Positions 1 through 64,000 of a DNA stretch of 64,000 bases are shown one piece after another. This stretch comes from Antarcticibacterium sp. 1MA-6-2. GTDB taxonomy: Bacteria; Bacteroidota; Bacteroidia; Flavobacteriales; Flavobacteriaceae. The DNA lies in assembly GCF_021535135.1 (NCBI RefSeq), contig NZ_CP091036.1, forward strand, positions 4,092,001 through 4,156,000, in the 5' to 3' direction. The notes beneath the pieces are model-generated. The model was given only the letters and a program-made list of their open reading frames with translations, was not told where the DNA came from and searched no databases. Position 1 is the stretch's first letter. Every line of letters begins with the position of its first letter. The translations under genes were made by a program, and so were the position numbers.

Positions 1-94
1 GGCAGATGATTTTATTGCCAAGCCTTTTGAAATGGATGAACTTATTTCTAAGATAAGAGAAATTGTAGAAAAAAGAAAAAATTCTGTTTCGTAA
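1..94 (+). CDS. Response regulator receiver domain, C-terminal end (partial)
   Basis: Only the last 30 codons are inside the window, read from base 2 to a TAA at 92-94. The peptide contains DDFIAKPF followed by an acidic/basic helix. This is the conserved end of a CheY-like receiver domain: the Lys-Pro after beta-5 is the invariant lysine contacting the phospho-aspartate, and the last helix follows. The protein stops straight after the receiver fold, so it is either a stand-alone receiver or the C-terminal receiver of a hybrid sensor kinase. The upstream part is outside the window, so output domain and partner cannot be judged. No terminator hairpin is evident in the 113 bp before the next gene. 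Confidence 0.75.
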   Translation, partial: ADDFIAKPFEMDELISKIREIVEKRKNSVS

Positions 95-207
95 AATATT
101 ATTTCAGTTTTAAAATTTCCTTTGCCAGTTGGGAAGGGCAACTTTGTATTTTTCTTCTACTAAATATGGGGGTTTTTAGTATCTTGAGCATTTAAATAAA
201 ATTTTTT

Positions 208-2671
208 ATGATCAGGAAAATATCGGCAATAGGTGTTATTGCCGCACTTTGTTTTGGCTGTCAAAGTCAGGGTAAAGTTGCAGAAAACCCACAGGCAAAC
301 TCTTCTAATTCCTCCACAAGTTTTAAAAAATCTACAGGTGATCTCAAAGCATATCATGAAGTTATTGCCGGAGCGGCAAAAAGTGATGAAGGCCTTTTCA
401 CCACCCACCGGATGGGAGACAAATTGTATTTTGAAATCCCTCTTACTCTATTAGACAAGGATATGCTCCTGGTAAGCAGGATTGCCAGGGTCCCCTCGGG
501 ATTTGGAGGAGGTTATGTTAATGCTGGCTCCAAAGTGAACGAGCAGGTAATTCGCTGGACGCAAAGAGGAAATTTTATAGATGTAAAAGTTATAAGCTTT
601 GAGAACCAAAGCGACGAAAATTCCCCTATCTATCAGTCGGTTGCAGCAAACAATTTCTTTCCAATCCTTTACAGCGCAAAAATTTCGGCTTATAGTGAGG
701 ACAAGTCTGCAGTTGTTGTTGAGGTAAACAGCTTGTTTGAAACAGATATTGAAGCTATAAATGGAGTTTCTTCGTCTCTTAAGAAGAGATATAAAGTGAA
801 GAAGCTGGACCAAAACAGGTCCTATATCGAATCTGCTCAGGCTTATCCGAAGAATGTAGAGATTAAACATGTAATGACATATGAAGCTGAAGAACCGCCG
901 GAAAGAAGTCAGGCGGGCACTATTTCTCTTCTTATGAACCAGTCTATGATCTTACTTCCGGACGATATGATGCAGCCGAGGCTGGCTGATTATCGCGTAG
1001 GGTGGTTTACAACACAAAAGTACAATTATGATTCTGAGGAACTGAAGTCCGATGATTATGAGATTATTCGAAGATGGAGGTTGGTACCTAAGGACGTGGA
1101 GGCTTATAAAAGAGGAGAACTTGTTGAGCCTGTTAAGCCTATCGTATATTACCTTGACCCGGGCACACCTGAGAAATGGCGACCTTATTTTAAGCAGGGG
1201 ATAGAAGACTGGAACGTAGCATTTGAAGCTGCTCAGTTTTAAAAATGCCATAATAGCTAAAGATCCACCTACAAAAGAAGAAGATCCGGAGTTTAGTCCT
1301 GAAGACGTAAGATATAGTGTTGTAAGATATGTTGCCAGTACTACAAGGAATGCTGTAGGGCCTTCAGTGACAGATCCCCGTACAGGAGAGATCATTGAGA
1401 GTGACATCATATGGTATCACAACCACCTTCGTTCCTATAGAAATAGGTTTATGATTGAAGCAGGTGCTCAAAACCCCGCAGCAAGAAGCCTTAACACGCC
1501 AGAGAAGGAAATAGGAGAAATGATGAGAATGGTAATCGCTCATGAAGTTGGTCACGCGCTTGGTCTACCGCATAACATGAAAGCAAGTGCCGCTTATCCA
1601 ACAGATTCTTTAAGGTCTGCTACATTTACACAAAAATATGGTCTTACTCCATCAATTATGGATTACGCAAGGGTTAACTATATAGCTCAACCTGAAGATA
1701 AAGGAGTTCGATACATAAGAATGATGGGGCCTTATGATTTATACGCCATAAACTGGGGTTACAGGTTTCTTCCGGAAGCAAATTCTCCTCAGGAAGAAAA
1801 AAAGGTTCTGGACAAATGGATTCTGGATAAAGCCGGGGATCGAGTCTACGAGTTTGGGGGAGGTTATGATGGTGTAGATCCTCAGTCTCAAAGAGAAAGT
1901 CTGGGAGCTGACCAGGTAAAAGCAGGGGAATATGGTTTAGCCAATCTTAAAAAAGTGGTTCCAAATCTCGTGGAATGGACTGCAAAGGATGGATATGGCT
2001 ATGATGAACTTGCAGAAGTGTACGGGGAATTGACCGGTATGTGGAGAGGATATATTTCTCACGTCATAGCTAACGTGGGAGGAGTTTATGAAACCCGTAA
2101 AACTTCCGATCAGCAAGGTGTTATTTACACTCCTGTTCCACAAGATATTCAAAAGAAGGCAGTGAGTTTTCTGAATAAAGATGCCTTCACTACTCCAGAC
2201 TGGTTATTGAATCAGGACTTATTGAATAGAATTGAATCTGCAGGGGCTATAGAGCGAATTCAAAGTTTGCAAACACGTTCTTTGGATAACCTTTTAGATA
2301 AAGACAGGTTGAAACGAATGGTAACCAATGAACAGGTAAATGGAGGAGAGGCTTATACTGTTGTTGAACTTATGAACGACCTTAGAAAAGGTATTTTCGC
2401 CGAACTGTACAGCTCCAAAAAAGTGGATGCTTATCGTAGAAATATACAGAGATCGTATGTTGATGCAGCGACCAACTATGTTCAAAAGTTGAAAGAAGAG
2501 GATAGTGAGGGTATTTTAAAAAGTGACATTATAGCTTTAATGAGAGGCGAAATGGAGAGATTGAGAAGAGATATTAATCAAAGGAGATCCAACACAAATG
2601 ATTCTTTGACCCGATACCACTGGAATGATCTAGTGGCAAGAATTGATGCCAGCCTTAAGACGGATGCTTAG
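208..2671 (+). CDS. Secreted zinc-dependent metalloprotease (DUF5117/DUF4953 type), frameshifted
   Basis: Large Bacteroidota metallopeptidase of about 820 codons, probably cell-surface or periplasmic. The N-terminus has a hydrophobic stretch ending in FGCQSQ, which looks like a lipoprotein signal with Cys near residue 17. The catalytic zinc site is HEVGHALGLPHN, the extended metzincin-like HExxHxxGxxH, at about residue 445. The upstream half resembles the DUF5117/DUF5118 region and the rest DUF4953. The frame breaks at about 1238-1244: DWNVAFEAAQF is followed by TTT TAA, and reading resumes as KNAIIAKDPP if one T is removed from the TTTT run. The two halves abut without loss, so this is one gene with a +1 lesion. 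The substrate is not known. No Shine-Dalgarno is visible, which is normal for the phylum. Confidence 0.85.
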
Positions 2672-2689
2672 ATAATAAAGGTATAATAG

Positions 2690-2720
2690 AAAAGCTCCGC
2701 AAATCTCTGCGGAGCTTTTT
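2690..2720 (+). terminator. Rho-independent terminator after the metalloprotease
   Basis: Perfect 11-bp inverted repeat AAAGCTCCGCA (2691-2701) and TGCGGAGCTTT (2708-2718), followed by a T run. It lies 20 bp after the stop codon of the metalloprotease and closes that transcript before the reverse-strand genes begin. Confidence 0.85.
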
Positions 2721-2779
2721 ATTTAAAATAATAAAAAATAGAAAAGGATTCTACTTAGGTACTTTTAAGTGTTAAGGTA

Positions 2780-3025
2780 CTATTGGATTTCTTCATTGAC
2801 TTCTTCTCCATTGACATCATCCGCATTGTCAATTTCCTCCTGTACTTCTTCTTTTACTTTTTTAGCTCCTTCCTCAATTTTCTTTCCTGCTTTTTTGGTG
2901 TTATCTTCAATGTCTTCACCTATAGCTTCTACTGCGTCCTGTGTTTTTTGCTGGGTGGTTTCTCTACAGGAGAACAGGGTGCACGAGAAAATGGCCAACA
3001 ATAACATTAAGAATGACTTTTTCAT
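2780..3025 (-). CDS. Small SCRETT-type lipoprotein, paralogue 1
   Basis: Peptide of 81 residues with a lysine start, a hydrophobic signal and a lipobox ending FSCRETT, so the mature lipoprotein begins at Cys. The rest is one charged, Glu/Lys-rich segment with a heptad-like pattern (KKAGKKIEEGAKKVKEE), predicted as a long amphipathic helix. I chose the second Met (MKKSF) because it gives a canonical signal peptide; an upstream in-frame Met three codons earlier is possible. It has an acidic paralogue directly upstream on the same strand. No named family is recognised. The low-complexity amphipathic helix resembles small envelope or stress lipoproteins and YtxH-like tails, but function is unknown. 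Confidence 0.7.
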   Translation of the reverse strand: MKKSFLMLLLAIFSCTLFSCRETTQQKTQDAVEAIGEDIEDNTKKAGKKIEEGAKKVKEEVQEEIDNADDVNGEEVNEEIQ

Positions 3026-3050
3026 AATTACCACTTTTAAGATTCAACCT

Positions 3051-3086: not shown

Positions 3087-3105
3087 TAATAAAATGTAAT
3101 GTCGA

Positions 3106-5574: not shown

Positions 5575-7823
5575 TTAATCGTTCCTATTATCTCTAGATC
5601 TTCTGTCGTCGCGGCCACGGTTGTCTCTTGAGCCACCACGGTTATCACGACCTCTGTCATTACGATCGTTGCGGTCATTACCTTCACGAGGCGGTCTTGC
5701 CTGGTAACCTTCAGGTTTTTCAAGTAAGGCTTTCCGTGAAACTTTTTCTTTTCGCGTTTTTGGATCTACTCCAAAATATTTCACGTCTATAACATCACCA
5801 ATGTTTACAATATCTGTAACATTATCAGTTCGTTCCCACGCAAGTTCAGAAATGTGTAATAAAACTTCATTTCCGGGAGCATCTAAATATTCTACTACTG
5901 CACCAAAATCAAGAACTTTTATAACTTTAACTTCGTAAACGCTACCTTTTTCAGGTTTGAAAGTGATAGAGTCTATTTTAGCAAGAACCTTATCAATTCC
6001 TTCCTGGCTGGTTCCAAGGATTTCTACAACACCCTGCTCATTAACTTCGTTAATGACAATTTCAGTTTTAGTTGTTTTCTGTAATTCCTGAATTACTTTT
6101 CCACCTGGTCCAATAAGTGCACCAATATATTCCTGAGGAATGGTTACTGTTACAATTTTAGGAGCGTGAGCTTTTACGCTTTCATTAGGCTGAGAAATGG
6201 CTTCTTCTATTTTATCAAGAATATGAAGTCTGCCTTCTCTTGCTTGTTTCAAAGCTTTCACAAGAATTTCGTAGGAAAGTCCTTTTACTTTAATATCCAT
6301 TTGGCAGGCAGTAATTCCATCTCTGGTACCTGTAACTTTAAAGTCCATATCTCCCAAAGCATCTTCATCTCCAAGAATATCCGAAAGAACCGCGAAATCT
6401 TCACCCTGAGAGATTAATCCCATTGCAATTCCTGATACAGGTTTTTTCAATTTAATACCAGCATCCATAAGGGCCATAGTACTTAAGCACAAACAGTAGC
6501 CATAGAAGATGAACCGTTGGATTCCAATACTTCAGAAACAACTCTTACAGTATAAGGACAATCTGCAGGAATCATATTTTTAAGTGCGCGTTGTGCAAGA
6601 TTTCCATGTCCAATTTCCCGTCTTGAAGTCCCTCTTAAGGGGTAAGCTTCACCTGTTGAGAAAGGAGGGAAGTTATAATGTAAATAAAATGTTTCTTCTC
6701 CCTGGAAAGTTGGAAGATCCACCTGGTTTGCTTCCCTGGATGTTCCAAGAGTCACGGTTGCCAATGCCTGAGTTTCACCTCTTGTAAAAAGAGCTGAACC
6801 ATGAGTAGCAGGTAAATAGGCGACTTCGCTCCAAATAGGACGAATTTCGTCTGTCCTTCTACCGTCTAAACGAGTACCTTCTTTTAAAGTTAGGTCTCTA
6901 ATAGCTGCTTTTTGAGTTTCTTTAAAATATTTAGAAATCATAGCTCCATTTTCTTCCAGTTCTTCTTCAGAAAATTGTGCCTTAATTTCTTCTTTTATTT
7001 CAGAAAAAGCTGCACTTCGATCTTTTTTTGCCTTAGAATCTTTAGCGGTATCGTATATTTTTTGATAAGCAGCTTCTCTGACTTTTTGCTGAACACTCTC
7101 GTCTTCTCTCGCAACTTCATATTCTCTTGGCTCTTTTTTGCCAAAAGCTTCTGCAAGGCGAACCTGAGCATCAATCTGAATTTTAATAGCTTCGTGAGCA
7201 AATTTTATAGCCTCAGCCATTTCCTCTTCGCTACATTCTTTCATTTCACCTTCTACCATCATCACAGAATCTGCAGAAGCTCCAATGATCATATCAATAT
7301 CAGCTTCTTCTAATGCTGAACGACTTGGGTTGATAACGAATTCTCCGTTAATTCTGGCTACACGAGCTTCAGAAACAGGAGTTTCAAAAGGAATGTCAGA
7401 AAGCTGAATAGCGGTAGAAGCAGCAAGACCTGCAAGAGCATCTGGCATCACTTCCTCATCATGAGACATTAACTGGATCATTACCTGTGTCTCAAATTTG
7501 TAATCTGATGGAAATAATGGTCTCAGAACACGGTCTACCAGACGCATTACCAGGATCTCCTCATTACTTGGCCTGGCTTCTCTTTTAAAGAAACCACCAG
7601 GATATCTTCCTGCTGCAGCGAATTTCTCACGATAATCTAATGTAAGCGGGAAAAAATCCATTGTAGTTGGAGTGTGAGAGGATACAACGGTACAAAGCAT
7701 TACAGCATTTCCCATTCTAAGCTCCACCGATCCATGGGCCTGTTTTGCTAATTTTCCGGTCTCGAGTGAAATAGTTCTTCCATCTCCTAACTCGATAACC
7801 TCTTTAAATGTTTTTGGAATCAT
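5575..7823 (-). CDS. pnp: Polyribonucleotide nucleotidyltransferase, frameshifted
   Basis: PNPase, the phosphorolytic 3'-5' exoribonuclease of mRNA decay, about 749 codons as expected. Order: first RNase PH domain ([20 protein letters not shown], with [20 protein letters not shown]), helical domain, second RNase PH domain ([16 protein letters not shown]), KH domain with [12 protein letters not shown]1 domain ([14 protein letters not shown]), and a basic Arg/Asp/Asn-rich tail with RGG-like repeats. The frame breaks at about 6481-6486, where VCA is followed by TAA in [20 protein letters not shown] is restored if this was GCTGGT. Because PNPase is highly conserved and both halves join exactly, the break is a lesion or sequence error. 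The gene lies downstream of rpsO on the same strand, the classical rpsO-pnp order. Confidence 0.95.
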
Positions 7824-8442: not shown

Positions 8443-9290
8443 CTACTGATTTTGGATAAGATCCAGGTAGAGATTAACTTTATCTTTAAGTTCAGATCGG
8501 GGAGTTATAAAATCAAGAAATCCATGCTCCATTAAAAATTCTGCAGTTTGGAAATCTTTTGGGAGATCCTGTCCAGTTGTATCTTTTACAACTCGTGGAC
8601 GTAAGCAAACCCAATTAATGCCCCTGGCTCAGATATATTGATGTCCCCTAGCATTGCAAAGGAAGCCGTAGTTCCTCCTGTAGTAGGATCTGTACAAAGA
8701 GAAATGTATGGTATACCAGCATCTGAAAGGCGTGCAAGTTTAGCAGAAGTTTTTGCTAATTGCATTAAGGACAAAGCTGCTTCCATCATTCTTGCGCCAC
8801 CAGATTTTGAAATAATTAGTAGGGGAATTTTGTTTTCCAAAGAAAAATCTGCAGCACGTGCTATTTTTTCTCCTACAACAGATCCCATAGAACCACCAAT
8901 AAAACTAAAATCCATACAGGCAACCACTAACTCTTTACCTTTGGAATTACCTACCGCTGTTCTTACAGCATCAGTAAGTCCGGTTTTTTCCTGAGCGGCC
9001 TTTAATCTATCAGTATATTTAGAAGTATCCTCAAAATTTAAAGGGTCTTTGGAGGTTATATTCTTATCTAGTTCTCTAAATTGATTGTCGTCAAAAAGTA
9101 TTTTGAAGTATTCTTTACTGCCAATTCTCACATGATAACCATCTTCAGGGCTAACATAGAAATTTTTTTCAAGCTGCTCTGCATCTACAATTTTACCTGT
9201 AGGAGATTTGTACCATAAACCTTTTGGAACATCCTTTTTCTCTTCAGTAGGTGTTTGTATACCTTTTTGTGTTCTTTTAAACCACGCCAT
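8443..9290 (-). CDS. accD: Acetyl-CoA carboxylase carboxyltransferase subunit beta, frameshifted
   Basis: Beta subunit of the carboxyltransferase that makes malonyl-CoA. It starts [14 protein letters not shown] and ends [17 protein letters not shown] before TAG at 8443-8445, about 280 codons. The carboxyltransferase core is clear: [59 protein letters not shown]. The zinc-ribbon cysteines of E. coli AccD are missing: the aligned stretch reads [11 protein letters not shown] and [12 protein letters not shown] with no Cys. The frame breaks at about 8590-8596, where GFA-GPRVV reads GCTTACGTCC; GCTGGTCC restores it. The gene is essential in bacteria with type II fatty acid synthesis, so the break is most likely a sequence error. 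Confidence 0.93.
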
Positions 9291-10518: not shown

Positions 10519-13086
10519 TTAGAAAGGGTAATTAATTCCAACATTATATACGGCATTATTAAAATTGTAGTTCTTAAACCACCTTTCACCCTTAGGTAGT
10601 GCAGGGTCATAAGTTTTAAAACCAACGTCAAATCGAAGAACGAAAAAGTTAAAATCGTAGCGCAGGCCCGTACCTGTTCCAACTGCGATATCCTGTAGGT
10701 CTGCAAAAGAATTGAAGGTGGCGGCATCCTCTTCTACGATATCCAGCACATTCCAAATATTCCCTATATCTACAAATAAGGCAGAATTTAAAGCTCCAAA
10801 GATGTTAAACCTAGTATTCTGCATTTAAAGCAATTTTCATATTTGCTTCGTTAAATTCATTCCTTCCGCCGCTACTTCCCGGACCCAGATCGTATGCCTG
10901 CCATGCACGATTATCATTTGGTCCTCCGGCAAAAAAACTACGAATAAAAGGAATGCTGTTGGCATTGCCATAAGGAATAGCAACCCCACCAAATGTTCTT
11001 ATTGCAAAGATATTTTTATTGCCCCAGTCCCAGTGTTTTATATAATCAATTTCTGTCTTGGCGTATTGTGAAAAATTTACTCCCCAAATTTCATAAACTC
11101 CTGAAGCACTACGGTCCAAACCTAAGCAATTCCCGAAACGGCGGCCAGCACATTTCCTGCAGTTTCTACTTTAAACCGGAATCTGGAGAAATCACTGTCA
11201 TAAAGATTTTCTTTGTTGTTGCGTAAGTAGGTGAAGTTGGTTGAAAAAATTAGGTTATTTTCAGTTAATCTCTTTTTCCGTTCCCCTATATTTCTAACTT
11301 CCTGGCGCTGGCCGGGTGAGAGGCCAGAGGTTCCTGAATTTTCCTCGGTGACGTCGCGTATAAATCCCTCTGCACCATTAGGAATGGAAAGTAAGCCTTC
11401 CTGAGTTAAATATTGTGGAGAAGTAACAACGTTACCCGATCTAACAATTTCATTTAGATTGTTATAGGAATTTCTATAGACATTAAAATAATTATCGGTA
11501 TTCACATTTCGAACGTACTGAATATTTAAAAGATCCAGGCGGTGTGAAAGAATCCGGGAGGGATTCCAGCTGTAATTCAAAATTCCGTTTACGTTCTGTT
11601 TATCCAGACCAATATTGTTTTGGCTACTTACTCCTAAACTCACTGAGGTAAATGGCGACATATACTTCGGAATAAACTTTTCGGTATCAAAAGGAAGAAA
11701 GATCCTTGGGAAAGTCAATTTTAAATCAGCTCCAACTTCCGAAATATTAAAAAAACGGTCTTTTGAGCTTCCGCGTGCAGCATCAGAAGAAGAACCAACA
11801 CTACCCCGTCCTGAAATTTCAAAATTTTCGGCACCTCCAAAAACGTTCCGAATTAGAAGAGAGCCTCCAAAACCTATTCCGAAGTCCATAATATTACTTT
11901 GGGATACCTCAAAATCGAAACCTAAGGAATATTTTTGTAGAGGGGATAGAAAAATGTTTGCAATTAAATTGGTATCTGTAGTATCTGCAGGATCTGCAGT
12001 ATATTCAATAGTGGGATATTTAAATACCCGCAACGAACTTACCCTGTTATAGGTTCGTGTCCTGTCTCTATCCCGATAAATTTGTCCCGGTCTTATGAAT
12101 ATAGCATCGGTAATGGCCTGGGGTTTAAATTCAAGTTCATCGAAGCTGTAAATGTAATACCCGTTGTACTGCGCACTATCGGTTACAGGATTGAGCCTGT
12201 TGGCATAGGAATAATCAGTAAATACATTTACCCGCGAAATTTTGTGAATATTAAAGGGTTCCCTGGTGGATATCCCATTATTGTTAACCTGCCTGTTATT
12301 TATAATTGTTGTAGAGTTTAATTTGTAATTAGTGTCAACAGTATCGGCCTCAAAACTTATGTATTCCTGATCAAAATTATACACTCCATTGTTCCTGAAT
12401 AATGAGGTAAGCCTGTCCCGTTCTTCATTAAAATCTAAAGTGCGGTATTGTTCTCCTGAGTTAATTAAAGAGGCAGACGAATGTGCTTCATAAATGGAAT
12501 CTATAACAGGTGATGCAATCCTGGTACGAATGGAGTCAACTATATAGGGCTCTTTGGTAGTTACAAAATAATTAATTTCACCACGTTGCTCTTTAGTTGG
12601 TAGTATTTCATAGTCTATTTGAGCATTAAACCAGCCGTTATTGAAGTACCAGGATTGTAATCGGTTCCGGGATTTTTTAGCTAATTCCTCATCAATAATT
12701 ACCGGGGCTTCTCCTGTGCTTTTTATCCACTCATTGAAGTTAACGTACGCCTCCCTCATCTTATCCACCTGTTTTCGTGAATAAATGTTTACCAGTCTTT
12801 CCTCCCTTCCCGGTTTTTTGTGCAACCAGTGAAGAAAAGCGGAGTCTGGATCTTGCTTTGCCCAGTTATAAAAATGTAATTTTATAGGAACACCTAAGAG
12901 CCGGGAGTTGGGTTCCTGGTACAGCTGGTTATATATTCTGTTTTTTTTTATTTCCTCCCCGTTACGGTAGATTGTATTATTGGTAAGAAGCAATTCATCA
13001 CTTTCTACTCTCTTTACAGCATTACAGGAAATTAATAATACAACGGTTAAAATAAATAACGATATTTTTGCAGAAAGGCGTTTCAA
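10519..13086 (-). CDS. tamL: TamL-type outer membrane assembly lipoprotein (BamA/TamA superfamily), frameshifted
   Basis: Outer-membrane Omp85-family protein of about 855 codons. The N-terminus has a lipoprotein signal, VVLLISCNAVKRV, which marks the TamL subgroup of Bacteroidota. POTRA-like segments follow (for example LNSTTIINNRQVNNNGIS and RDRTRTYNRVSSLRVFKYP). The C-terminal barrel includes SLGFDFEVSQSNIMDFGIG and the late segments AIRTFGGVAIPYGNANSIPF and RAWQAYDLGPGSSGG, and the protein ends in VGINYPF with terminal aromatic residue. Two lesions split it: at about 11123 (SGIA then GCTTAGGT, expected GCTGGT, giving SGIAGLDRSASG) and at about 10813 (NAEY then TAG, one extra T before AGGTTT). 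The role, assembly or export of outer-membrane and surface proteins, is inferred from the family. Confidence 0.9.
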
Positions 13087-15406: not shown

Positions 15407-16757
15407 ATGAAGATTATTATCGCTTAGTGCTGGTGAAGTTGGCTTTCATTTGGCTAAATTACTTTCCTTTGAGTCCCAGGATATTACACTTATAGATAAC
15501 AACAGGGACAATTTAATATATGCTGATACTCACTTAGACATACGAACTGTTAAGGGAGATGCTACCTCAATTTCTATTTTAAAAGACGCTAATGTAAAAT
15601 ATGTTGATTTGGTAATAGGTGTAACTTCTAGTGAAGCCACAAATATTACCGTTTGTGTACTTGCAAAGCAATTGGGAGCGAAACGCACTATTGCGAGAAT
15701 TTCTAATACTGAATTTCTCGAAAATAAGGAAGAAATTGGATTTACCCAATTTGGAATTGATGAATTAATTTCCCCCGAAGCACTTGCCGCGAGAGAAATT
15801 GCTTTACTTCTGGACCAGTCTGCTTTTAATGACAGCTACGAGTTTGAAGATGGGGCACTTACTATGATTGGTTTAAATCTCTCCAGGACTGCTATGTTCG
15901 TAGGAAAAACTGTCAAGGATGCCGCAAAAATTTTCCCAAAACTCCATTTTGTACCTATTGCTATCCAGAGGTTTGGTACACAGTATACCTTAATTCCTCG
16001 AGGAGATACTCAATTTAAAGAGGGGGATCAGGTTTACTTTGTTACAGTTACTAGTGGAGTTGAAGAATTATATAAACTTACAGGAAAAGTAAAGCATACC
16101 ATCAAAAATATAATGATCCTTGGAGGAAGTAAAATAGGTAAAAAGACAGCAAAAGATTTATGCCGGAATAATTTCAAAGTGAAATTAATTGAAAATGACA
16201 GGGAAAAAGCATTTGATCTTGCCGATGAGTTGCCCGATGCACTTATTATCAATAGTGACGGGCGAAATGTAGAATTACTTGATGAAGAAAATATTCACGA
16301 GATGGATGCTTTTATTGCGGTAACAGGTAATTCTGAAACTAATATCATGTCCTGTCTTGTAGCAAAATCCAAGAGCGTTAAAAAGACAATAGCTCTGGTT
16401 GAAAACATGGACTATTTTCAGTTAAGTCATTCTATTGGAATAGATACACTTATCAATAAGAAACTACTGGCGGCCAATAATATCTTTAGATATATAAGAA
16501 AAGGAGAGGTTGTGGCCATGACCAAACTTAACAATATGAATGCTGAACTTTTAGAGTTCATAGTTAAACCAACTTCCCAGGTCTGCGACAAAAAAATTAA
16601 AGATCTTGATTTTCCACGATCTGCAATTATAGGAGGAATCATCAGGAATGGAGAGGGTTTAATTGCACTGGGAGATTTTATGATAAGATCTGGGGACCGG
16701 ATAGTGGTATGTTGCCTACCCCGATCTATTAATAAGGTGGAGAAACTATTTTTATAA
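15407..16757 (+). CDS. trkA: Trk system potassium transporter peripheral subunit TrkA, early stop
   Basis: NAD-binding regulatory subunit of the Trk K+ uptake system, about 449 codons, with two RCK_N/RCK_C units. It starts MKIIIA, then TAG at 15425-15427. The expected continuation is GAGEVGFHLAKLLSFE, the first Rossmann GxGxxG, which is restored if GCTTAGTGCT was GCTGGTGCT. The second Rossmann unit has IMILGGSKIGKKTAKDL, and both halves end in RCK_C domains (LIPRGDTQFKEGDQVYFV; IALGDFMIRSGDRIVV). trkH, its usual neighbour, is not here: the next gene is on the other strand and separated by a bidirectional terminator. Without the correction only a six-residue peptide would be made. Confidence 0.92.
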
Positions 16758-18036: not shown

Positions 18037-18059
18037 AAATGGTTGGTTAATAATAAAAC

Positions 18060-24918: not shown

Positions 24919-24952
24919 TAAAAAAGCCCGGAAATTTCCGGGCTTTTTTTTA
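24919..24952. terminator. Bidirectional terminator between the dehydrogenase and giant gene A
   Basis: Stem AAAAAAGCCCGGAAA / TTTCCGGGCTTTTTTT centred near 24934. The A and T runs on both sides allow termination of both the + strand dehydrogenase and the reverse-strand giant gene, whose stop codon is at 24950-24952 inside the T run. Confidence 0.85.
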
Positions 24953-42530: not shown

Positions 42531-44155
42531 CTATCCCATAAATGGATATCTGTAATCTGTTGCAGGTACAAAAGTTTCTTTAATGGTTCGTGGAGAAACC
42601 CATCGTAACAGGTTCAGTTTTGATCCGGCTTTGTCGTTGGTTCCGCTGGCTCTGGCTCCACCAAAGGGTTGTTGGCCTACTACTGCTCCCGTAGGTTTGT
42701 CATTGATGTAGAAGTTTCCTGCCGAATTTTGAAGGGCTTCAGTTGCCTGTGCAATGGCGTATCGGTCGCCTGAGAAAATTGCTCCGGTTAAACCATACTC
42801 ACTTGTCTCATCAACCAGCTTAAGGGTTTCTTCCCATTGGCTGTCTTCGTACAAATAAATTGTTACCACAGGACCAAAAAGTTCGGTACACATTGTGGTA
42901 TATTCAGGACTTGTTGTAAGAATTACAGTAGGCTCAATAAAGTATCCTTTAGACTTATCGTAATTACCACCAACCACGATTTCAGCATCATTATCATTTT
43001 TTGCTCTGTCTATATATTCAGCAAGTTTATCAAATGAACCTTCGTGGATCACTGCAGTGATAAAGTTGCTCATATCTTCCGGAGATCCCATTTTAAAAGA
43101 TTTGACATCCTCAGTCACAAAAGTTTTCACTTGCTCCCACATGCTCTTTGGAAGGTAAACCCTGGAAGCTGCACTACATTTTTGTCCCTGAAATTCAAAT
43201 GCTCCCCTAGAGATGGCTGTAGCCACTTGTTTAGGGTTTGCTGTAGGATGAGCAAGAATAAAGTCCTTACCACCTGTTTCCCCAACAATGCGGGGATATG
43301 TTTTGTAATTGTTGATGTTTTCTCCAATTTTCTTCCAGATTCCCTTGAAGACATGGGTGCTACCAGTGAAATGCACTCCGGTAAAATCGGGGCTTGCAAG
43401 TACAGTATCTGTAATCATTACAGGGTCTCCCATTACCATATTAATTACTCCATCTGGTAGACTGGCTTCTTTAAAAACCTCCATTATTACCTGAGCGGAA
43501 TAAACCTGGCTGTCGCTAGGCTTCCACACTACGGTATTACCCATTAAAGCTGCACTGGCAGGAAGATTTCCTGCGATTGCTGTGAAGTTGAAGGGGGTAA
43601 TGGCATAAACAAACCCTTCCAAAGTGCTTACTCCAATCTGTTCCAGGCTCCCGGTGTAGATTCGGGCTGCTCTTCATAGATCTGCGCCATATATTCCACA
43701 TTAAAATTCAGGAAGTCTATAAGTTCACAGGCTGAATCTATTTCGGCCTGGAAAATAGTTTTCGACTGTCCTATCATAGTAGCGGCATTAATCTTGGAGC
43801 GGTAAGGTCCTGCAATAAGATCGGCTGCCTTTAAAAAAACTGCTGCTCTTTGTTCCCACTCAAGTCGCGACCATTTTTTCCGAGATTCAAGAGCTGCTGA
43901 AATGGCCAAATCTATATGTTCTTTTTTTGCCTGATGAAAAACTCCTAGGTTGTGTTTGTGGTCATGAGGAGGGTGCATGCTTTTTGTGTCCCCTGTTTTA
44001 ATTTCCTCTGATCCTATATATAATGGTACTTCAATAGTAGATTTCCATAATTTCTTGTAGGTACTTAATACTTCCTCTCTTTCGGGGGTCCCGGGAGAGT
44101 ATGACTTTATAGGTTCATTGACCGCTGTAGGAACTTGAAAAAATCCTTTTCCCAT
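42531..44155 (-). CDS. pruA: L-glutamate gamma-semialdehyde dehydrogenase, frameshifted
   Basis: NAD-dependent enzyme of proline catabolism, about 541 codons in the Bacteroidota form (GKGFFQVPTAVNEPIKSY at the N-terminus). The ALDH fold is clear: YAITPFNFTAIAGNLPASAA, GETGGKDFILAHP (catalytic Glu), and EFQGQKCSAASRVYLP (catalytic Cys). The end DYRYPFMG is typical of the family. The frame breaks at about 43620-43628 (AWNRLE then TAA; GAGTAAGCAC lacks one base, and the downstream frame LEGFVYAIT follows directly). No proline dehydrogenase gene is adjacent. A terminator is found at 42466-42500. Confidence 0.92.
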
Positions 44156-45016: not shown

Positions 45017-45404
45017 TTAATTTAAAGCGAAGGGAGCACTAAGTTTAAAGGAAGGGATTCCTACTTTAAACTTTTTAGAGGAAGTGAAATTGATCATATT
45101 AAAATGTCCACTCATTGCCCCAAAAGGTGCTGTTAGGAGGCAAACACTGCTGTAGGTGTGCGATTCTCCCGGTTTAAGCACCTAGTTTCTTGCCAATAAC
45201 ACCTTCTCCCTGTACAACTTCAGTGTTATTAAGAGCATCTTTTATTCTCCAGAATCTGGATTTTAATTGCACAGAGTCTTTGCTCTGATTTTCAATGGTG
45301 ATCCTATAGCCAAATGCGAAGTTTATTTTATAGTTCTTATAAAATGTGCCTTCGAAATTGGTCTCGACAGAAATCTTTATGCCACTAGTTACCTGTTGTA
45401 TCAT
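45017..45404 (-). CDS. apaG: ApaG (Co2+/Mg2+ efflux protein) domain protein, frameshifted
   Basis: About 129 codons. The ApaG beta-sandwich sequence is conserved: FAFGYRITIENQ, VQLKSRFWRI, VVQGEGVIGKKP, then SHTYSSVCLLTAPFGAMSG, HFNMINF. The stop lies at 45017-45019. The frame breaks at about 45180-45186 (GKKLGA then TAA; CTAGGTGCTT with C changed to TA; CCGGTGCTT gives KKPVLKPGESHTY). In E. coli apaG is in the ksgA-apaH operon; here it is 2 bp downstream of a DUF3667 gene in a reverse-strand operon with a T9SS plug protein. Its molecular role is unclear. Confidence 0.88.
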
Positions 45405-46558: not shown

Positions 46559-46568
46559 TACTACCTGC

Positions 46569-47984: not shown

Positions 47985-49329
47985 ATGTCAAAGGACATTC
48001 GAATTAAAAGAGGTTTAACTCTACGATTAAAAGGGGAGGCGGAAAAACAAGTTGTTGAGGCCCCAAGGTCTAAAACCTACGCCATTAAACCCCCCGATTT
48101 TCACTCAGTAATTCCAAAAATGGTTGTCAAAGAAGGAGATAAACTTCTTGCTTAAGTGATGAAATTTTCTTTTCTAAATATACTGAAGAGGTGAGGTTTA
48201 CTTCTCCTGTGAGTGGTACTGTTTTGGAAGTTAAACGCGGTGAAAAACGACGAATTTTGGAAGTGATCATTGAAGCTACTTTAATGATGAATACAAAGAC
48301 TTCGGAAAGTTAAATGCTTCAACGGCAGATGCAGAATCTGTAAAAGATCTTATCCTTAGAAGTGGATGTGGTGCTTTTATAATGCAAAGGCCTTACGATA
48401 TTGTTGCAGATCCAAAAGATACGCCCAAGTCAATTTTTGTCTCTGCCGTTACAACAGCTCCTCTGGCAGGAGATAAGGGATTTATTTTAAAGGATAAAGT
48501 GGCCGCTTTTCAGGAGGGGATTTACGCCTTGCAAAAGTTGACCCCCGGGAAAGTATATCTTTCTGTTGATGAAAGTTCTGCTACTCATCTTAAGGATATT
48601 AAAGGGGCCGAAATAGTGCATGTTAAAGGAAAACATCCTGCAGGAAATGTGGGAGTTCAAATCCATAAACTGGACCCTGTTAATATTGGTGAGCGGGTTT
48701 GGACAGTGGGACCTGAGGATGTTGCTATAATTGGAAATGTTTTTCTTACCGGAAGGTATCTCGCAAATCGTACTGTTGCAGTAGTGGGCAGTGAAGCTAA
48801 AGACAGAAAGTATTACCAAATTAAAATAGGAGCAAACTCCAATGAGTTAATTGGAAGAATTCCAGAGAATGTAAGGATCATTTCCGGAGACGTGCTTACA
48901 GGTACAAAAATCTCCAATAATCAACACCTGGGATTTTATCACAACACCCTTAGTTTAATTCCGGAAGGAAATCAATATAGAATGTTAGGGTGGTTACCAT
49001 TTACATATAATAATATCCATTCCAGTTCCAGGACTTCCCTGTCCTTCTTATTTCCCAAGAAAAAGTATGAACCTACTACCAATTTAAATGGGGAGGAACG
49101 TGCTTTAGTGGTGACGGGAGAAATGGAAGAAGTAGTTCCTATGGACATATTCCCTATGCAATTGATTAAGGCTTGTATGGCGGGGGATATTGAAAAAATG
49201 GAAAACCTGGGAATTTATGAAGTAGCTCCTGAAGATTTTGCTTTAGTTGATTATGTAAATACTTCTAAAATTGAAACACAGGAAATTATACGGTTAGGTT
49301 TGGATTTAATGATTACTGAAGTAGGTTAA
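47985..49329 (+). CDS. nqrA: Na+-translocating NADH:quinone reductase subunit A, frameshifted
   Basis: Quinone-binding subunit of the sodium pump, about 448 codons. It starts MSKDIRIKRGLTLRLKGEAE (ATG 47985). First break at about 48150-48156: GDKLLA then TAA in GCTTAAGTGATG, expected GCTGGTGATG (AGDEIFFSKYTEEV). Second break at about 48280-48286: IIEA then ACTTTAATG lacks a G (GCTGACTTT gives EADFNDEYKDFGKL). After that the frame is open to the end (RPYDIVADPKDTPKSIFVSA). Gly-rich and aromatic motifs near QRPYDIVADP are conserved. It leads the nqrABCDEF operon. Confidence 0.95.
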
Positions 49330-49340: not shown

Positions 49341-50527
49341 ATGGAATGGATAAGACAGAGATTAGATAAATTTAAAAAGCCATTTAATAAGGGAGAGAAA
49401 TTTGAAAAATATGCTCCTGCCATTAATGCTTTAGATACTTTTTTATTTACCCCTAACCATACTACAAAAACTTATGCTCACATTAGGGATGCTGTAGATT
49501 TGAAAAGGGTTATGATTACAGTGGTTATTGCTTTACTTCCTGCTTTAATTTTTGGAATGTGGAACCAGGGATACCAATTCCTTTCGCAAATTCAGGCAGA
49601 AGTTGGATTCTGGGAGGCCTTTGGTCACGGAGCGTCAAAAATACTTCCTATGATTGCCGTTTCTTACGGGGTGGGATTAGGAATTGAATTCGCATTTGCT
49701 ATTATGCGGGGCCACGAAGTTAACGAAGGATACCTTGTTACCGGGTTGTTGATCCCTATGATAATGCCAATAGACATTCCATTGTGGATGGTAGCTATTT
49801 CTGTAATTTTTGCAGTTATTATAGGTAAAGAAGCTTTTGGAGGAACAGGAATGAATATTCTTAATCCCGCTTTAACTGCCCGGGCTTTTGCATTCTTTGC
49901 ATACCCTACTTATATGTCTGGAAACTCGGTTTGGGTGAGCAATGCATACGAACTCGATGCAGTATCGGGAGAGACTATTTTAGGTAGTCTTGCAGCTGGC
50001 GAAAAGGTGCAGTACGATGCCTGGGATATGTTTGTGGGAGTGATTCCCGGTTCTATAGCAGAGACTTCTACCCTGTGTATTCTTGCTTAAGTGCGGCCTT
50101 TATGATCTTTGCCGGAGTTGGTTATTGGCGAATAATGTTGAGTTGTTTCGTGGGGGCTATAGTAATGGGGCTTATTTTTAATTCCCTTCCTTATTTTGGT
50201 TTTGAAGGAAATGCCCTAACAAATTTCCCCTGGTATAAACATCTAATTGCCGGAGGTTTGGCTTTTGGTATAGTGTTCATGGCTACAGATCCTGTTTCGG
50301 CATCACAAACCACACGGGGAAAATATATATATGGATTTTTAATAGGATTTTTTGCAGTAATGATCAGGGTGTTTAATCCTGCGTATCCGGAAGGTATTAT
50401 GCTTGCGATCCTGTTAATGAATGTTTTCGCGCCTGTAATTGATCATTATGTAATACAGGGTAACGTTAAAAAGAGATTAAAGAGGAGAGATACTTCTATG
50501 AATCCACAAATTAATACAGCTGTTTAA
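49341..50527 (+). CDS. nqrB: Na+-translocating NADH:quinone reductase subunit B, frameshifted
   Basis: Integral membrane subunit, about 395 codons, with RnfD-like helices. Conserved segments are LFTPNHTTKTYAHIRDAVDL, GRGHEVNEGY-type loop (IMRGHEVNEGYLVTGLLIPM), GGTGMNILNPALTARAFAFF, and the later ATDPVSASQTTRGKYIYGFL. Covalent FMN is attached by ApbE to a Thr in the motif DAVSGETILG (family consensus SGAT; here Glu replaces Ala). The frame breaks at about 50086-50092 (CILA then TAA in GCTTAAGTGCGG, expected GCTGGTGCGG or similar). Both halves join exactly. Confidence 0.95.
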
Positions 50528-50529
50528 AA

Positions 50530-51274: not shown

Positions 51275-52043
51275 ATGGCACAGGAAAAAAATTTAAACCC
51301 TGAGCAATCTGCTGAGGTAACACAAAAATCACGGGAAGATAAGAAGAACGCAATGGTTCTTTTCTTATCAGATTCTGAAGAAAAAGAAAGTTTTCTCTCT
51401 AAGAGAAACAGGAAACTACTTTCAGATCCTTTAAATGATAATAACCCTATAACTGTTCAGGTGCTTGGTATTTGTTCAGCACTTGCAATTACAGTGCAGC
51501 TGGAACCAGCTATTGTAATGGCTTTAGCGGTAACAGCGGTAATGGCTTTCTCTAACATGATTATTTCAATGTTGAGAAATATGATCCCGAGTAGGATCAG
51601 AATTATCGTTCAGCTTGTTGTAGTAGCATCTTTGGTGGCATTGGTAGACCAGGTTTTAAGGGCTTATGCTTATGATGTGAGTAAGCAGCTTTCAGTATTC
51701 ATTGGTCTTATTATTACGAACTGTATAGTAATGGGACGCTTGGAAGCCTTTGCTCTTGGTAATGGTGTCTACAGGTCTTTTCTTGATGGGGTAGGTAACG
51801 CTGCCGGATACGGATTAATTCTTGTTATTGTAGCTTTCTTCAGGGAATTGTTAGGTGCTGGCAAATTGTTCGGCTATGAAGTTCTTGGCCATAAAGGAGC
51901 TACCCTTGCAGAATCTACTCTATTTATATGCTATAGGATATGAAAATAACGGATTAATGCTCCTCTCCCCAATGGCTCTTATAGTTGTTGGTATTTTGAT
52001 CTGGTTCCAAAGATCCAGAAACCGAAAACTAATTGAGGCCTAA
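51275..52043 (+). CDS. nqrD: Na+-translocating NADH:quinone reductase subunit D, frameshifted
   Basis: Membrane subunit of about 256 codons with an extended, charged N-terminus ([20 protein letters not shown]), followed by about six helices. Conserved: [19 protein letters not shown] (with the helix-break Cys at the iron site) and [20 protein letters not shown]. The start at 51275 is preferred over an upstream ATG that overlaps nqrC. The frame breaks at about 51919-51926 ([10 protein letters not shown]; an extra T in CTCTATTTATATG; without it [17 protein letters not shown]). It ends [12 protein letters not shown]. Confidence 0.93.
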
Positions 52044-54461: not shown

Positions 54462-55465
54462 GCTGTTCTTTAGTGGTTTTTTTATTATTTTATTTTTGGC
54501 CTGTAATAGTCAGGAATCCAAAGAACAGATCTATAGCGGAGAGGCCCTGGGTACTTCTTATCAAATTAAATTTTTCTATCCCGAAGAACTGGAACTGCAG
54601 GAAAGTCTGGATTCCATTTTTAGAAATATTAATGAATCGATGAGTACCTATCAGGACAACTCTGACATCTCCCGAATCAATGCCGGAGATACCACTATTA
54701 TGGTTGACGAAAATTTTCGTAAGGTCTTTATGGATTCTTATCAAATCTATATTAAGAGCCGCGGTTTTTTTGATCCCACAGTTGGAAATCTTGTAAATGC
54801 CTATGGATTTGGACCGGAATCAGGAGAGGCAGAATTAGACCAGGAAGAAGTAGATTCAATGCTTCAGTACGTAGGTTTCAATAAGCTTAAACTTTCAAAT
54901 GATAACCACATTATAAAGGATCATCCTGAAATATATCTCGATTTTAATGCTATAGCCAAAGGCTATACTGTTGATGTACTTGCTTCATATCTAGAAAGTA
55001 AAGGAGTTGAAGATATTCTCGTAGAAGTTGGTGGAGAGCTTGTAGCCAAGGGGAAGAACCTCGGTAAAGATTTCCCCTGGACCGTGGGAATTGATGATCC
55101 TCTCCAGGTCGAGGGAAAGAGGTCCCTTACAGCTGCCCTGCGTCTGGAAAACAGAGCTATGGCAACTTCGGGTAATTATAGGAAATTTAGAGTTGATTCC
55201 AATTAGGAGAAGATTCGTACATACCATTAATCCACTCACAGGTCTTTCAGAAAAAAGTAATCTTTTAAGTGCCACGGTTCTTGCTCCTACATGTTCCCTG
55301 GCCGATGGTTATGCAACCGCGTTTATGGCTATGGGGTATGAAAGGGCAGTGGAGCTGGTAGAGAAATTAGAAAAAGTAGATGTTTATTTAATTTATTCGA
55401 CGGCAGAGGAAGAAGTTAAAGTGTATTCTACTCCCGGTTTTGAGCAGGCACTTCTTAAAGAATAG
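54436..55465 (+). CDS. apbE: FAD:protein FMN transferase ApbE, frameshifted
   Basis: Lipoprotein flavin transferase that attaches FMN covalently to NqrB and NqrC. Signal and lipobox: FFIILFLACNSQ. Motifs: GEALGTSYQIKFF, MSTYQDNSDISRIN, FFDPTVGNLVNAYGFG, LDFNAIAKGYTVDVLA, LVEVGGELVAKGKN and, after the break, VHTINPLTGLSEK, ATVLAPTCSLADGYATA. The frame breaks at about 55201-55212 (FRVDSN then TAG; net +1 or -2), before GE/RFVHT. It starts 26 bp inside the preceding gene and is convergent with a methyltransferase, tails overlapping by 11 bp. Confidence 0.92.
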
Positions 55466-60631: not shown

Positions 60632-61365
60632 ATGACGCATAAGATTTTAACTGTACTGGCAATTTTTATATTTTCATTCGCTTTTACTACCACCGACTCC
60701 AGCACATTTACTCCTTCCAAAAAAGCACTTACTTCAGTTCCGGCACTACTGAGGATCTTACCTTAGAGGAAGAAATCATAGAATTATACGACGAATTTTC
60801 TGAAAAGAATGCTACTATGCCTAACCTGGCAAGCTTTAAAAATGGAATGTTAGGTTATTATAAACTGGAAAATCAGGGGCAGGTAGATAAAAAAATACTT
60901 ACAATTATTGATTTCACGATGTCCTCAACTAAAAACAGATTATGGGTTTTGGATATGGACAAACAAAAAGTTCTTTTAAACACTGTTGTATCCCATGGAA
61001 AGAACACTTAGGGGGAATTTGCAACCAAATTTTCCAACACTGTGAACTCTCTCCAAAGTTCTCTTGGCTTCTATGTGACCGGGGAAACTTACTTCGGAAA
61101 AAATGGTTTATCTCTCTTTATTGATGGTAAGGAAAAGGAATTTAATTCAAGAGCCCGTGAGCGTTATGTAGTAATCCACGGAGCAGATTACGCGAATCCT
61201 GAAGTAGCTAAACGCACCGGAAGATTGGGAAGAAGTTATGGCTGCCCTGCAGTACCCAGAGATCTAACTCAAAAATTTATAGATATTATTAAAGATAAGT
61301 CTGTAGTTTATATTCACTCGAACGATCTTAAATACACAAAAAATTCAAAAATGATAAGAGCTTAG
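60632..61365 (+). CDS. Murein L,D-transpeptidase catalytic domain family (YkuD_2), frameshifted
   Basis: About 244 codons. Signal peptide ILTVLAIFIFSFAFT, then a domain with LYDEFSEKNATMPNLASF and the L,D-transpeptidase-like active region: YVVIHGADYANPEVA and GRSYGCPAVPRD (His and Cys). Two lesions: about 60740 (TCAGTTCCGG lacks one G) and a TAG at 61009-61011 (KNT then stop then GEFATKF; ACTTAGGGG, where ACTGG-type sequence is expected). The enzyme would cross-link or trim peptidoglycan. Its stop overlaps the stop of the convergent ycbB-like gene. Confidence 0.82.
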
Positions 61366-63017: not shown

Positions 63018-63101
63018 TTATTTCTAATCTATAAAAACGTTCATTCAAATGAGGATCGTCTCAATTCATTTAAGACTATTTAAAAACCTCCTTAAAAAGA
63101 A

Positions 63102-63128
63102 CGTTGCCAGCTTTTATTACTGGCAACG
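63102..63128 (-). terminator. Terminator after the clpP/GNAT genes
   Basis: Perfect 9-bp stem CGTTGCCAG (63102-63110) and CTGGCAACG (63120-63128), loop of 9 bases, with a T-rich tract on the reverse-strand downstream side (TTCTTTTTAAGG). It lies in the gap between the GNAT gene and the ycbB-like gene; no ORF in that gap is credible. Confidence 0.65.
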
Positions 63129-63223
63129 CATATTTATAAACCACTGTAAGTGATTTTTTATAATCTAAATCCGGATTATCTATAAAATTGGGTAGGAAAA
63201 ATAAAAAGAATTTTCCCTCAATT

Positions 63224-63514
63224 TTAATCCACACGAACGTCCTTATAATCTTGATTTTGATCAAATTGAACTTCTGCAAAAGGACAGAGAGGATCAACTT
63301 TTAAATTTTGCTCCCGGGCAAATTCCACACTTCTTTTTACCAGGCGTGAGGCAAGACCCTGACCCTCAAGTTCCGGGCGGGTTTCAGTATGATCAATTAC
63401 CATAATTCCATTTTCCTTCCGGGCATAGGTAAGTTCTGATATTATTCCTTTTTCATCCTCCATGTAGAACATACCTCTTCGGTCGCTTTCCTTATGTTTT
63501 ATCTCTTTTTCCAT
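63224..63514 (-). CDS. Small GNAT-family N-acetyltransferase (YidJ/DUF-type)
   Basis: Protein of 96 residues. RRGMFYMEDEKGIISELTY, IMVIDHTETRPELEGQGLAS (acetyl-CoA binding motif with RxxGxG/A-like QGLAS), LVKRSVEFAREQNL and DPLCPFAEVQFDQNQD. The short length is typical for the 'N-acetyltransferase, GNAT, YJDJ-type' group of stand-alone domains; the acceptor is unknown. It is 3 bp after the clpP stop. Confidence 0.8.
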   Translation of the reverse strand: MEKEIKHKESDRRGMFYMEDEKGIISELTYARKENGIMVIDHTETRPELEGQGLASRLVKRSVEFAREQNLKVDPLCPFAEVQFDQNQDYKDVRVD

Positions 63515-63517
63515 CGT

Positions 63518-64000
63518 TTATGGTTTGAATTCTGCATCTACAATACCATAGGAAACAGATTCCTCTGCATCCATCCAGTAATCCCTGTTAAAATCTTTTA
63601 AAACCTTTTCAATAGTTTGCCCGCAATTTTCTGCAAGAATTTTGGCACTAAGTTCTTTGGTCTTTAAAATTTCTGTTGCCTGTATCTCAATATTAGAAGC
63701 CTGCCCACGGGTTCCCCCGCTTGGTTGGTGGATCATCACCTTAGCGTGTTTCTGAATATATCTTTTTCCTTTAGTTCCTCCGGAAAGCAATATGGATCCC
63801 ATAGAGGCGGCCAGTCCTGTACAAATGGTAGATACTGGACTTTTTAAGGTTTGCATGGTATCATAAATGGCAAATCCATCGGTTACATATCCTCCGGGGC
63901 TGTTTATGAAAAACTGAATCTCTTTATCACCCTGAGCGTCCAGGTAAAGTAATCTATCTATTACGTGTTTTGCTGTTTTATCGTTAACCTCTCCCCAAAG
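63518..64000 (-). CDS. clpP: ATP-dependent Clp protease proteolytic subunit-like protein, partial
   Basis: C-terminal about 160 codons; the N-terminus is beyond the window edge. Reading is open from the right border (LWGEVNDKTAKHVIDRLLYL). ClpP catalytic residues: Ser in GLAASMGSILLSG, His in KVMIHQPSGG, Asp in NRDYWMDAEES. The oligomer helix and FINSPGGYVTDGFAIYD are conserved. It degrades unfolded proteins with ClpX/ClpA. The end VDAEFKP is slightly unusual, so it may be a second ClpP paralogue. Confidence 0.9.
   Translation of the reverse strand, partial: LWGEVNDKTAKHVIDRLLYLDAQGDKEIQFFINSPGGYVTDGFAIYDTMQTLKSPVSTICTGLAASMGSILLSGGTKGKRYIQKHAKVMIHQPSGGTRGQASNIEIQATEILKTKELSAKILAENCGQTIEKVLKDFNRDYWMDAEESVSYGIVDAEFKP

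What the first reader, a model, noticed from the sequence alone, without database searches (positions are those of the whole stretch)
1..64000. About 34 frame lesions in 64 kb, many with one signature: TA inserted between CT and GG at Ala-Gly (GCT GGT) sites
Seen directly: breaks in pnp (about 6483, GCTTAAGT), accD (about 8592, GCTTACGT), tamL (about 11123, GCTTAGGT), trkA (15422, GCTTAGT), the YciE-like gene (20234, ACTTAGGT), giant gene A (27811 GCTTAGT, 31570 GTTAAGT), giant gene B (32065 and 42062 GCTTAGT, 41275 GCTTAGGT, 41235 CTTAGC, 36231 CTAGGT, 40685 ATAAGGC), apaG (about 45183, CTAGGT), nqrA (48150) and nqrB (50087) (both GCTTAAGT), and the Ldt gene (61009, ACTTAGGG). In each, removing or replacing the TA restores conserved residues. 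The other breaks are single-base indels, mostly in homopolymers. Some GCTGGT sites stay intact (for example 15428, 23468, 29541, 55346), so the effect is not obligatory. Because essential genes are hit, a context-dependent consensus error is most likely, perhaps linked to a modified motif. A real TA-footprint process would be remarkable.
Basis: partly seen in the sequence, partly recalled or inferred. Interest (0 to 1): 0.75.

Follow-up and report, generated by a model that had tools for sequence, protein, structure and literature searches.

The report
Sequencing errors at methylated RCCGGY sites
The broken genes in this marine bacterium's genome are most likely reading errors in the assembly: nearly every copy of one six-letter DNA word (RCCGGY), probably chemically marked by the cell's own restriction-modification system, has been misread, so the genes themselves are probably intact.

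Summary
At 8 of 14 lesion sites aligned with same-genus genomes, at least one relative has RCCGGY exactly. In 464 kb of this genome RCCGGY occurs at 22 per Mb, against 1922 for YCCGGR and 1692 for RCCGGR; its hexamers are the three most depleted of 2065. Genome-wide, ACCGGT occurs 42 times (282-1166 in 15 congeners) and GCCGGT 19 times (614-2421 in four). Of 52 mapped frame breaks, 29 carry a strict TA signature, against 0.96% of random gene windows. The only PF00145 methyltransferase found lies beside a restriction enzyme gene and near a Vsr gene, the make-up reported for NmeDI (RCCGGY, m5C). A genome with relatives of the first two keeps RCCGGY at normal frequency, so avoidance is unlikely. 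Best explanation: RCCGGY is modified on both strands, and uncorrected long-read (nanopore-like) consensus calling misreads it. The lesions are probably not in the DNA. Reads and methylome could not be examined.

The parts
6481..6488 (-). TA-signature string GCTTAAGT breaking pnp
   Evidence: Frame break against 4 relative genomes; G011 carries GCCGGT here
8599..8606 (-). variant string GCTTACGT breaking accD (not one of the strict strings)
   Evidence: Frame break against 4 relative genomes; relatives carry GCCGGG, GCGGGG, GCAGGA, GCGGGA, none exactly RCCGGY
10809..10815 (-). string ACTAGGT breaking tamL (first of two)
   Evidence: Frame break against 4 genomes; no relative has exact RCCGGY here
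11120..11127 (-). string GCTTAGGT breaking tamL (second)
   Evidence: Frame break against 4 genomes; G001 has GCCGGT
15422..15428 (+). string GCTTAGT near the start of trkA; the adjacent GCTGGT (15429) is intact
   Evidence: Alignment: G011, G003, G001 and G010 carry GCCGGT or GCCGGC here
20234..20241 (+). string ACTTAGGT breaking the YciE-like gene
   Evidence: Frame break against 2 genomes; those two have ACAGGA and ACGGGG
20997..21003 (+). string ACCTAGT at a weakly supported break
   Evidence: One genome, 46% identity
32056..32062 (-). string GCTTAGT breaking a giant surface-protein gene
   Evidence: 3 genomes; flanking matches 47-75% identical
32879..32885 (-). string ACCTAGT breaking the same giant gene
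   Evidence: 2 genomes; flanking matches 47-54% identical
43615..43640 (-). one-base loss in an aldehyde-dehydrogenase-like gene (name recalled) where G011 has ACCGGC; no strict signature
   Evidence: 5 genomes
45180..45186 (-). string ACTAGGT breaking apaG; 4 of 5 relatives have ACCGGT here
   Evidence: 5 genomes
48150..48157 (+). string GCTTAAGT breaking nqrA; G011 has GCCGGT
   Evidence: 5 genomes
48270..48290 (+). second nqrA break, no strict signature, no RCCGGY in relatives
   Evidence: 5 genomes
50085..50092 (+). string GCTTAAGT breaking nqrB; no relative has RCCGGY here (G010 has GCTGGG)
   Evidence: 5 genomes
51915..51925 (+). ACTCTAT-type break in an nqr gene; relatives carry ACAGGA, ACCGGT, TCAGGA, ACCGGA, ACCGGA
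   Evidence: 5 genomes
55197..55214 (+). break in a gene downstream of the nqr cluster (CAATTAGG), no strict signature, no exact RCCGGY in relatives
   Evidence: 5 genomes
61006..61013 (+). ACTTAGGG: in-frame stop in the Ldt-like gene; relatives carry ACCGGA, ACAGGG, ACCGGG, ACCGGT, ACCGGA
   Evidence: Alignment with 5 relatives
2033..2038 (.). the only intact RCCGGY (ACCGGT) in the window, among 184 CCGG

Best explanation
RCCGGY sites in this Gillisia-genus chromosome are modified (most likely 5-methylcytosine on both strands) by an NmeDI-like type II restriction-modification system. The assembly was made from native-DNA long reads without effective correction for this motif. On each strand the modified C is read T-like, so the two strands disagree and the consensus writes TA-bearing strings (CTTAAG, CTTAG, CTTAGG, CTAGG, CCTAG and others) in place of CCGG, mostly adding one or two bases. 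Homopolymer indels add a second, ordinary error class. Shown: the exact motif loss, the coincidence of lesions with the TA strings, the near-absence of lesions in relatives' stretches, and the R-M genes. Inferred: that this enzyme modifies RCCGGY here, that the mark is m5C, that the platform is nanopore, and the strand-conflict mechanism. The DNA in the cell is most likely intact.
For: RCCGGY 22/Mb against YCCGGR 1922 and RCCGGR 1692 in the same 464 kb. GCCGGC, ACCGGC/GCCGGT and ACCGGT are the three most depleted of 2065 hexamers, obs/exp 0, 0 and 0.07. Genome-wide ACCGGT 42 against 282-1166 in 15 congeners; GCCGGT 19 against 614-2421 in four congeners. 29 of 52 mapped frame breaks carry the strict signature against 0.96% of random gene windows. 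At aligned G011 RCCGGY sites the class is kept in 1 of 130, against 62 of 421 at other NCCGGN, p 4e-7. Supported frame junctions: 12 in the window, 0-1 in each of five relatives' stretches. One PF00145 C5 methyltransferase found in the genome, without internal stop, overlapping a REase_II gene (PADLOC E 6.9e-132) and with a Vsr gene nearby; PF01555 not found while the control rang in 11 of 14 genomes. One of the 120 listed MTase relatives (P0172, 65%, full length) is named NmeDIP by its source, and its contig length equals that of the contig of REase relative P0036 (78%). [quoted passage not shown] Motif-specific nanopore consensus errors from untrained modifications are published: PMC10687267 (abstract, first part of Results), PMC6591954 (passages), PMC11610573 (passages).
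Against: In the two papers read on this, modification errors are mainly mismatches or R/Y ambiguities (PMC10687267, PMC11610573); one- and two-base insertions at nearly every site are unusual. No reads, platform record or methylome. At 6 of 14 aligned lesion sites (accD, first tamL, YciE-like, second nqrA, nqrB, 55200) no relative has exact RCCGGY. 23 of 52 lesions lack the strict signature; some look like looser variants, others like homopolymer indels. TA-type length changes at G011 RCCGGY sites are only modestly more frequent (6 of 130) than at other NCCGGN (6 of 421, p 0.04) and close to the rate at G011 RCAGGY/RCCTGY sites (10 of 344); G011 is a distant proxy. Strict-signature strings are not diagnostic alone: 1099/Mb here, 665 in G011, but 955 in G183, 960 in G049 and 920 in G159, which are lower in GC. 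42 ACCGGT and 19 GCCGGT sites survive for no known reason. The R-M enzymes' specificity was not tested, NmeDI itself was not compared, and methyltransferase families other than PF00145 and PF01555 were not searched. M.NmeDI has also been reported as recognising RCCGGB.
Confidence: 0.93

Rival explanations
1. Consensus error at RCCGGY from a basecaller or polisher model alone, without any DNA modification.
For: The artefact signature is the same, and the platform is unknown.
Against: Exact dependence on the outer R and Y of a palindromic hexamer (RCCGGR and YCCGGR are normal) is typical of an enzyme site. The genome carries an R-M set of the kind described for RCCGGY.
Confidence: 0.04
2. Real mutations: the cell's RCCGGY sites were cut or damaged (restriction enzyme, Vsr) and repaired with added TA bases.
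For: A restriction enzyme and a Vsr gene are encoded; the lesions sit at the expected kind of site.
Against: Nearly all sites of the genome would have to be mutated in a clonal genome, including in accD and nqr genes. A genome with REase (76%) and MTase (63%) relatives has a normal RCCGGY count.
Confidence: 0.015
3. RCCGGY is really avoided, by selection against restriction or by m5C deamination, and the frame breaks are unrelated.
For: At least four other Flavobacteriaceae genomes (G049, G393, G159, G221) have ACCGGT as low relative to the control word. ACTGGT is slightly higher here than in G011 (534 against 470 per Mb).
Against: In the pieces read, those four have very few CCGG of every kind, while this genome lacks only RCCGGY. 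RCTGGY as a whole is not raised (1610/Mb against 1680 in G011). 29 of 52 frame breaks carry the signature.
Confidence: 0.01
4. TA footprints of a transposon, or programmed frameshifting or recoding at these sites.
For: TA is a common insertion target (recalled).
Against: The lesions add one or two bases in several different strings, in unrelated genes, and the intact RCCGGY motif is almost gone genome-wide.
Confidence: 0.005

Closest known systems
Modification-induced nanopore consensus errors (Dcm CCWGG; GCAGC and GCTGG in Listeria; RACG/CGTY in Klebsiella)
   Same: Errors bound to a motif, systematic across the genome, tied to lineage-specific modification
   Different: Here the errors are mostly one- and two-base TA-bearing insertions that break frames and erase nearly every site; those in PMC10687267 and PMC11610573 are mismatches or ambiguities
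NmeDI restriction-modification system (RCCGGY; VSR, REase, m5C MTase)
   Same: Same gene kinds; its motif is the one lost here; one 65%-identical MTase relative is named NmeDIP
   Different: Specificity and activity of the Gillisia-genus enzymes are untested; NmeDI's own sequence was not compared
Cfr10I/Bse634I family (RCCGGY; specificity of Cfr10I in PMC4081073, passages)
   Same: Recognition sequence of the inferred motif
   Different: PF07832 not found in 16 genus genomes, though no control genome rang either; the restriction enzyme here had no hit in the Pfam scan and bears PF27126 in precomputed domains

Membership tests
Modification-induced sequencing error | Errors confined to one enzyme-like motif | tested here: inconclusive
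   Only RCCGGY of all NCCGGN is lost, but 23 of 52 lesions lack the strict signature, some of them homopolymer indels
Modification-induced sequencing error | Genome encodes a matching modification enzyme | tested here: inconclusive
   C5 MTase, REase and Vsr present; specificity only inferred through the NmeDIP name and PMC7973814
Modification-induced sequencing error | Errors vanish in amplified DNA or accurate reads | not testable with these tools
   No reads available
NmeDI-like R-M system | C5-cytosine MTase, REase and Vsr genes together | tested here: met
   L123 11900-14934, minus strand
NmeDI-like R-M system | Sequence homology to M.NmeDI and R.NmeDI | tested here: inconclusive
   Full-length relative P0172 (65%) named NmeDIP by its source; NmeDI itself not compared
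NmeDI-like R-M system | Methylates and cleaves RCCGGY | not testable with these tools
   Inferred from the lost motif only
Cfr10I/Bse634I restriction enzyme | PF07832 domain | tested here: inconclusive
   No match in 16 genomes, but no control genome rang either

The most novel reading that the evidence does not exclude
RCCGGY in this genus member carries a bulkier or unusual cytosine modification rather than plain m5C, strong enough to make a sequencer insert bases at almost every site, so the assembly itself is a footprint of an undescribed modification.
Probability: 0.07. Interest if true: 0.55.

Novelty: not a real feature. Interest (0 to 1): 0.27.

Why it matters
Gene calls for this genome cannot be trusted wherever RCCGGY is expected: housekeeping genes look broken and could be annotated as pseudogenes. 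More generally, a missing hexamer plus TA-bearing frame breaks in a finished assembly can point to the motif a strain's methyltransferase marks without any methylome, and can flag public genomes that need repolishing.

Tried and rejected
GCTGGT as the target: rejected, not strongly depleted. Strand bias of the miscalled strings as proof of a pipeline artefact: seen locally (GCTTAGT 38 against 18), gone genome-wide (253 against 241), so dropped. Plain DNA-to-DNA alignment for calling lesions gave 267 clusters that looked mostly spurious on inspection of the part printed; it was replaced by protein-anchored, frame-aware alignment. Its pairwise alignments were still used for the site classes, with a flank filter. 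Structure prediction of the restriction enzyme was poor in the middle (mean pLDDT 62.9), and the fold search had no match at E<=0.001. No PDB relative of the restriction enzyme by sequence. Plasmid records gave only partial relatives below 60% identity. ACCGGT depletion alone as a unique mark: rejected, since at least four other family genomes are as low, but they have few CCGG of any kind in the pieces read. A paper on this strain: not found; of four papers listed one was opened, and in its passages the taxon was Flavobacterium gillisiae. Literature searches for the same insertion-type error listed none that I recognised; listings were read only for titles and abstract starts, except the papers named in this report. 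PMC6789123 (passages) says only that several meningococci carry NmeDI after the Vsr gene.
Full report
Where the window lies. It is bases 4092001-4156000 of a single-contig chromosome of 4383004 bases. One same-genus genome, G010, has a contig of 324671 bases, the length of a Gillisia lutea contig, so the genus is taken to be Gillisia, a marine flavobacterium. Same-genus relatives with a match are 72-77% identical over the 2.6-kb nqr test region.

The breaks exist. ORFs of five same-genus genomes, searched against the window, switch frame in pnp, accD, tamL (twice), the YciE-like gene, apaG, nqrA (twice), nqrB, a further nqr gene, an aldehyde-dehydrogenase-like gene and others. A frame-aware alignment finds 18 distinct lesion places in the window, 16 of them supported by at least two relative genomes; trkA and the in-frame stop in Ldt add two. 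With one method applied to all six genomes, the window has 12 junctions, all supported by at least two genomes, in 40.6 kb of homology-covered sequence. G011, G005, G003, G001 and G010 have 1, 0, 2, 2 and 0 junctions, of which 0, 0, 1, 0 and 0 are so supported, in 25-51 kb each. Gene names are the finding's or recalled from the alignments; they were not assigned by a family search here, except the giant genes (SprB repeats and others).

The motif is RCCGGY. One search aligned 17 places, of which 14 are lesion sites. At 8 of these 14 (pnp, second tamL, trkA, apaG, nqrA, the ACTCTAT site, the aldehyde-dehydrogenase-like gene, Ldt) at least one relative has RCCGGY exactly. At the other six (accD, first tamL, YciE-like, second nqrA, nqrB, 55200) none has; most of these show neighbours such as RCAGGY, RCGGGR or RCCGGG, while nqrB has GCTGGG in G010. 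At trkA the relatives read GCCGGT or GCCGGC followed by a second Ala-Gly pair; in the window the first is broken while the adjacent GCTGGT is untouched. In 464 kb of this genome (window plus 400 kb fetched) ACCGGC/GCCGGT and GCCGGC do not occur and ACCGGT occurs at five sites, whereas the other NCCGGN words are at or not far below the level of G011. In an unbiased scan the three RCCGGY hexamers are the three most depleted of 2065 with expectation of at least 20 in both genomes. Genome-wide, ACCGGT occurs 42 times against 282-1166 in 15 congeners, some of them incomplete, and GCCGGT 19 times against 614-2421 in four congeners. The window holds one RCCGGY among 184 CCGG. The suspected strings are in excess over the reversed control word genome-wide: GCTTAAGT 166 against 98, GCTTAGT 494 against 187.

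Lesions and motif belong together. Of 55 lesion calls in the aligned parts of the 464 kb, 52 are distinct places. 29 of these carry one of seven strict strings (R, then CTAGG, CCTAG, CTTAG, CTAAG, CTTAGG, CCTAAG or CTTAAG, then Y). Random 28-base windows of genes do so in 0.96% of draws, and in G011 genes in 0.65% (the binomial P of about 1e-44 assumes independence, and the strings were chosen after seeing the lesions). Of the 23 others, several look like looser variants (accD GCTTACGT) and several are indels in A runs. As strings alone they are not diagnostic: 1099/Mb here, 665 in G011, but 955, 960 and 920 in the lower-GC G183, G049 and G159.

At sites where G011 has RCCGGY, this genome keeps the class in 1 of 130 (18 of 148 dropped for poor flanks), against 62 of 421 for other NCCGGN (49 of 470 dropped; Fisher p 4e-7). 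TA-type length changes there are 6 of 130 against 6 of 421 (p 0.04), and 10 of 344 at G011 RCAGGY/RCCTGY sites (30 dropped). The last contrast is weak, as expected if G011 is only a distant proxy for this genome's true sequence.

Mechanism (inference). The strings are near-palindromic, T on the left and A on the right. That is what strand-wise C-to-T and G-to-A reading of a symmetrically modified CCGG would give when two disagreeing strands are merged. The miscalled word GCTTAGT has no genome-wide strand preference (253 and 241).

The enzyme. A six-frame search of the genome finds one PF00145 C5-cytosine methyltransferase. PF01555 was not found although 11 of 14 control genomes rang; other methyltransferase families were not searched. 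The methyltransferase (394 aa, no stop inside) overlaps a 359-aa protein that PADLOC calls a type II restriction enzyme (E 6.9e-132), with a Vsr endonuclease gene close by (L123 11900-12979, 12957-14141 and 14515-14934, all minus strand; contig 3943900-3946934). Of the 120 MTase relatives listed, one (P0172, 65%, full length) is named modification methylase NmeDIP by its source. [quoted passage not shown] I did not compare NmeDI sequences themselves.

Not avoidance. G183 (contig length as Aegicerativicinus sediminis) has the REase at 76% and the MTase at 63%; no Vsr match appeared in the 40 kb read there. RCCGGY in it is as frequent as other NCCGGN (560, against 435 and 525 per Mb). This argues against avoidance only if its enzymes share the specificity. 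Of 397 family genomes, REase relatives at E<=1e-40 were found in 2, this genome included. At least four family genomes have ACCGGT as low relative to the reversed control word (G049, G393, G159, G221). In the 54-100 kb read of each, every CCGG class counted is rare (0-6 counts per class), whereas this genome lacks only RCCGGY.

Known background. Motif-bound nanopore consensus errors from modifications missing in training are established: PMC6591954 (passages: about 70% of errors in Dcm motifs for then-current ONT basecallers), PMC10687267 (abstract and first part of Results; motifs GCAGC and GCTGG in Listeria) and PMC11610573 (passages). In the last two the errors are mismatches or ambiguities. 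Insertion-type, frame-breaking errors at nearly every site are the unusual point here, and the opening for a bulkier mark.

Verdict. The breaks are most probably assembly errors at modified RCCGGY sites, with a background of homopolymer indels.

Noticed in passing
L123 8885-15493 (contig 3940885-3947493): The R-M genes lie between recombinase-like pieces (ORFs that look like a broken serine recombinase, recalled, and a tyrosine integrase fragment by Pfam), next to genes that look like gldK-gldN (recalled); probably a horizontally acquired island.
   Followed up: partly
window 24950-42140 (-): Giant surface-protein genes with SprB repeats, laminin-G-like and Ig-like domains and weak C-terminal sorting signals (five pieces scanned), split into many ORFs; probably gliding or adhesion proteins.
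   Followed up: partly
G000 genome-wide, e.g. window 2033: 42 ACCGGT and 19 GCCGGT sites survive. Of the five residual ACCGGT sites in the stretches read, two align cleanly with G011 in unbroken surroundings, one of them with ACCGGT in G011 too. Why they escape is unexplained.
   Followed up: partly
window 18058-18065 and 46567-46573: Signature-like strings at gene ends that look natural: the relatives also stop near there at 46567, and G003 has the same GCTTAAGT at 18058.
   Followed up: yes
window 48270-48290, 51915-51925, 55197-55214: Well-supported breaks in the nqr region without the strict signature; some may be looser forms of the same misreading.
   Followed up: partly
G049, G393, G159, G221: Flavobacteriaceae genomes with very few CCGG of every kind in the pieces read, apparently real avoidance.
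   Followed up: partly
G000: Listed completeness 97.25 and contamination 3.7 for a one-contig genome may be distorted by genes split by these errors.
   Followed up: no
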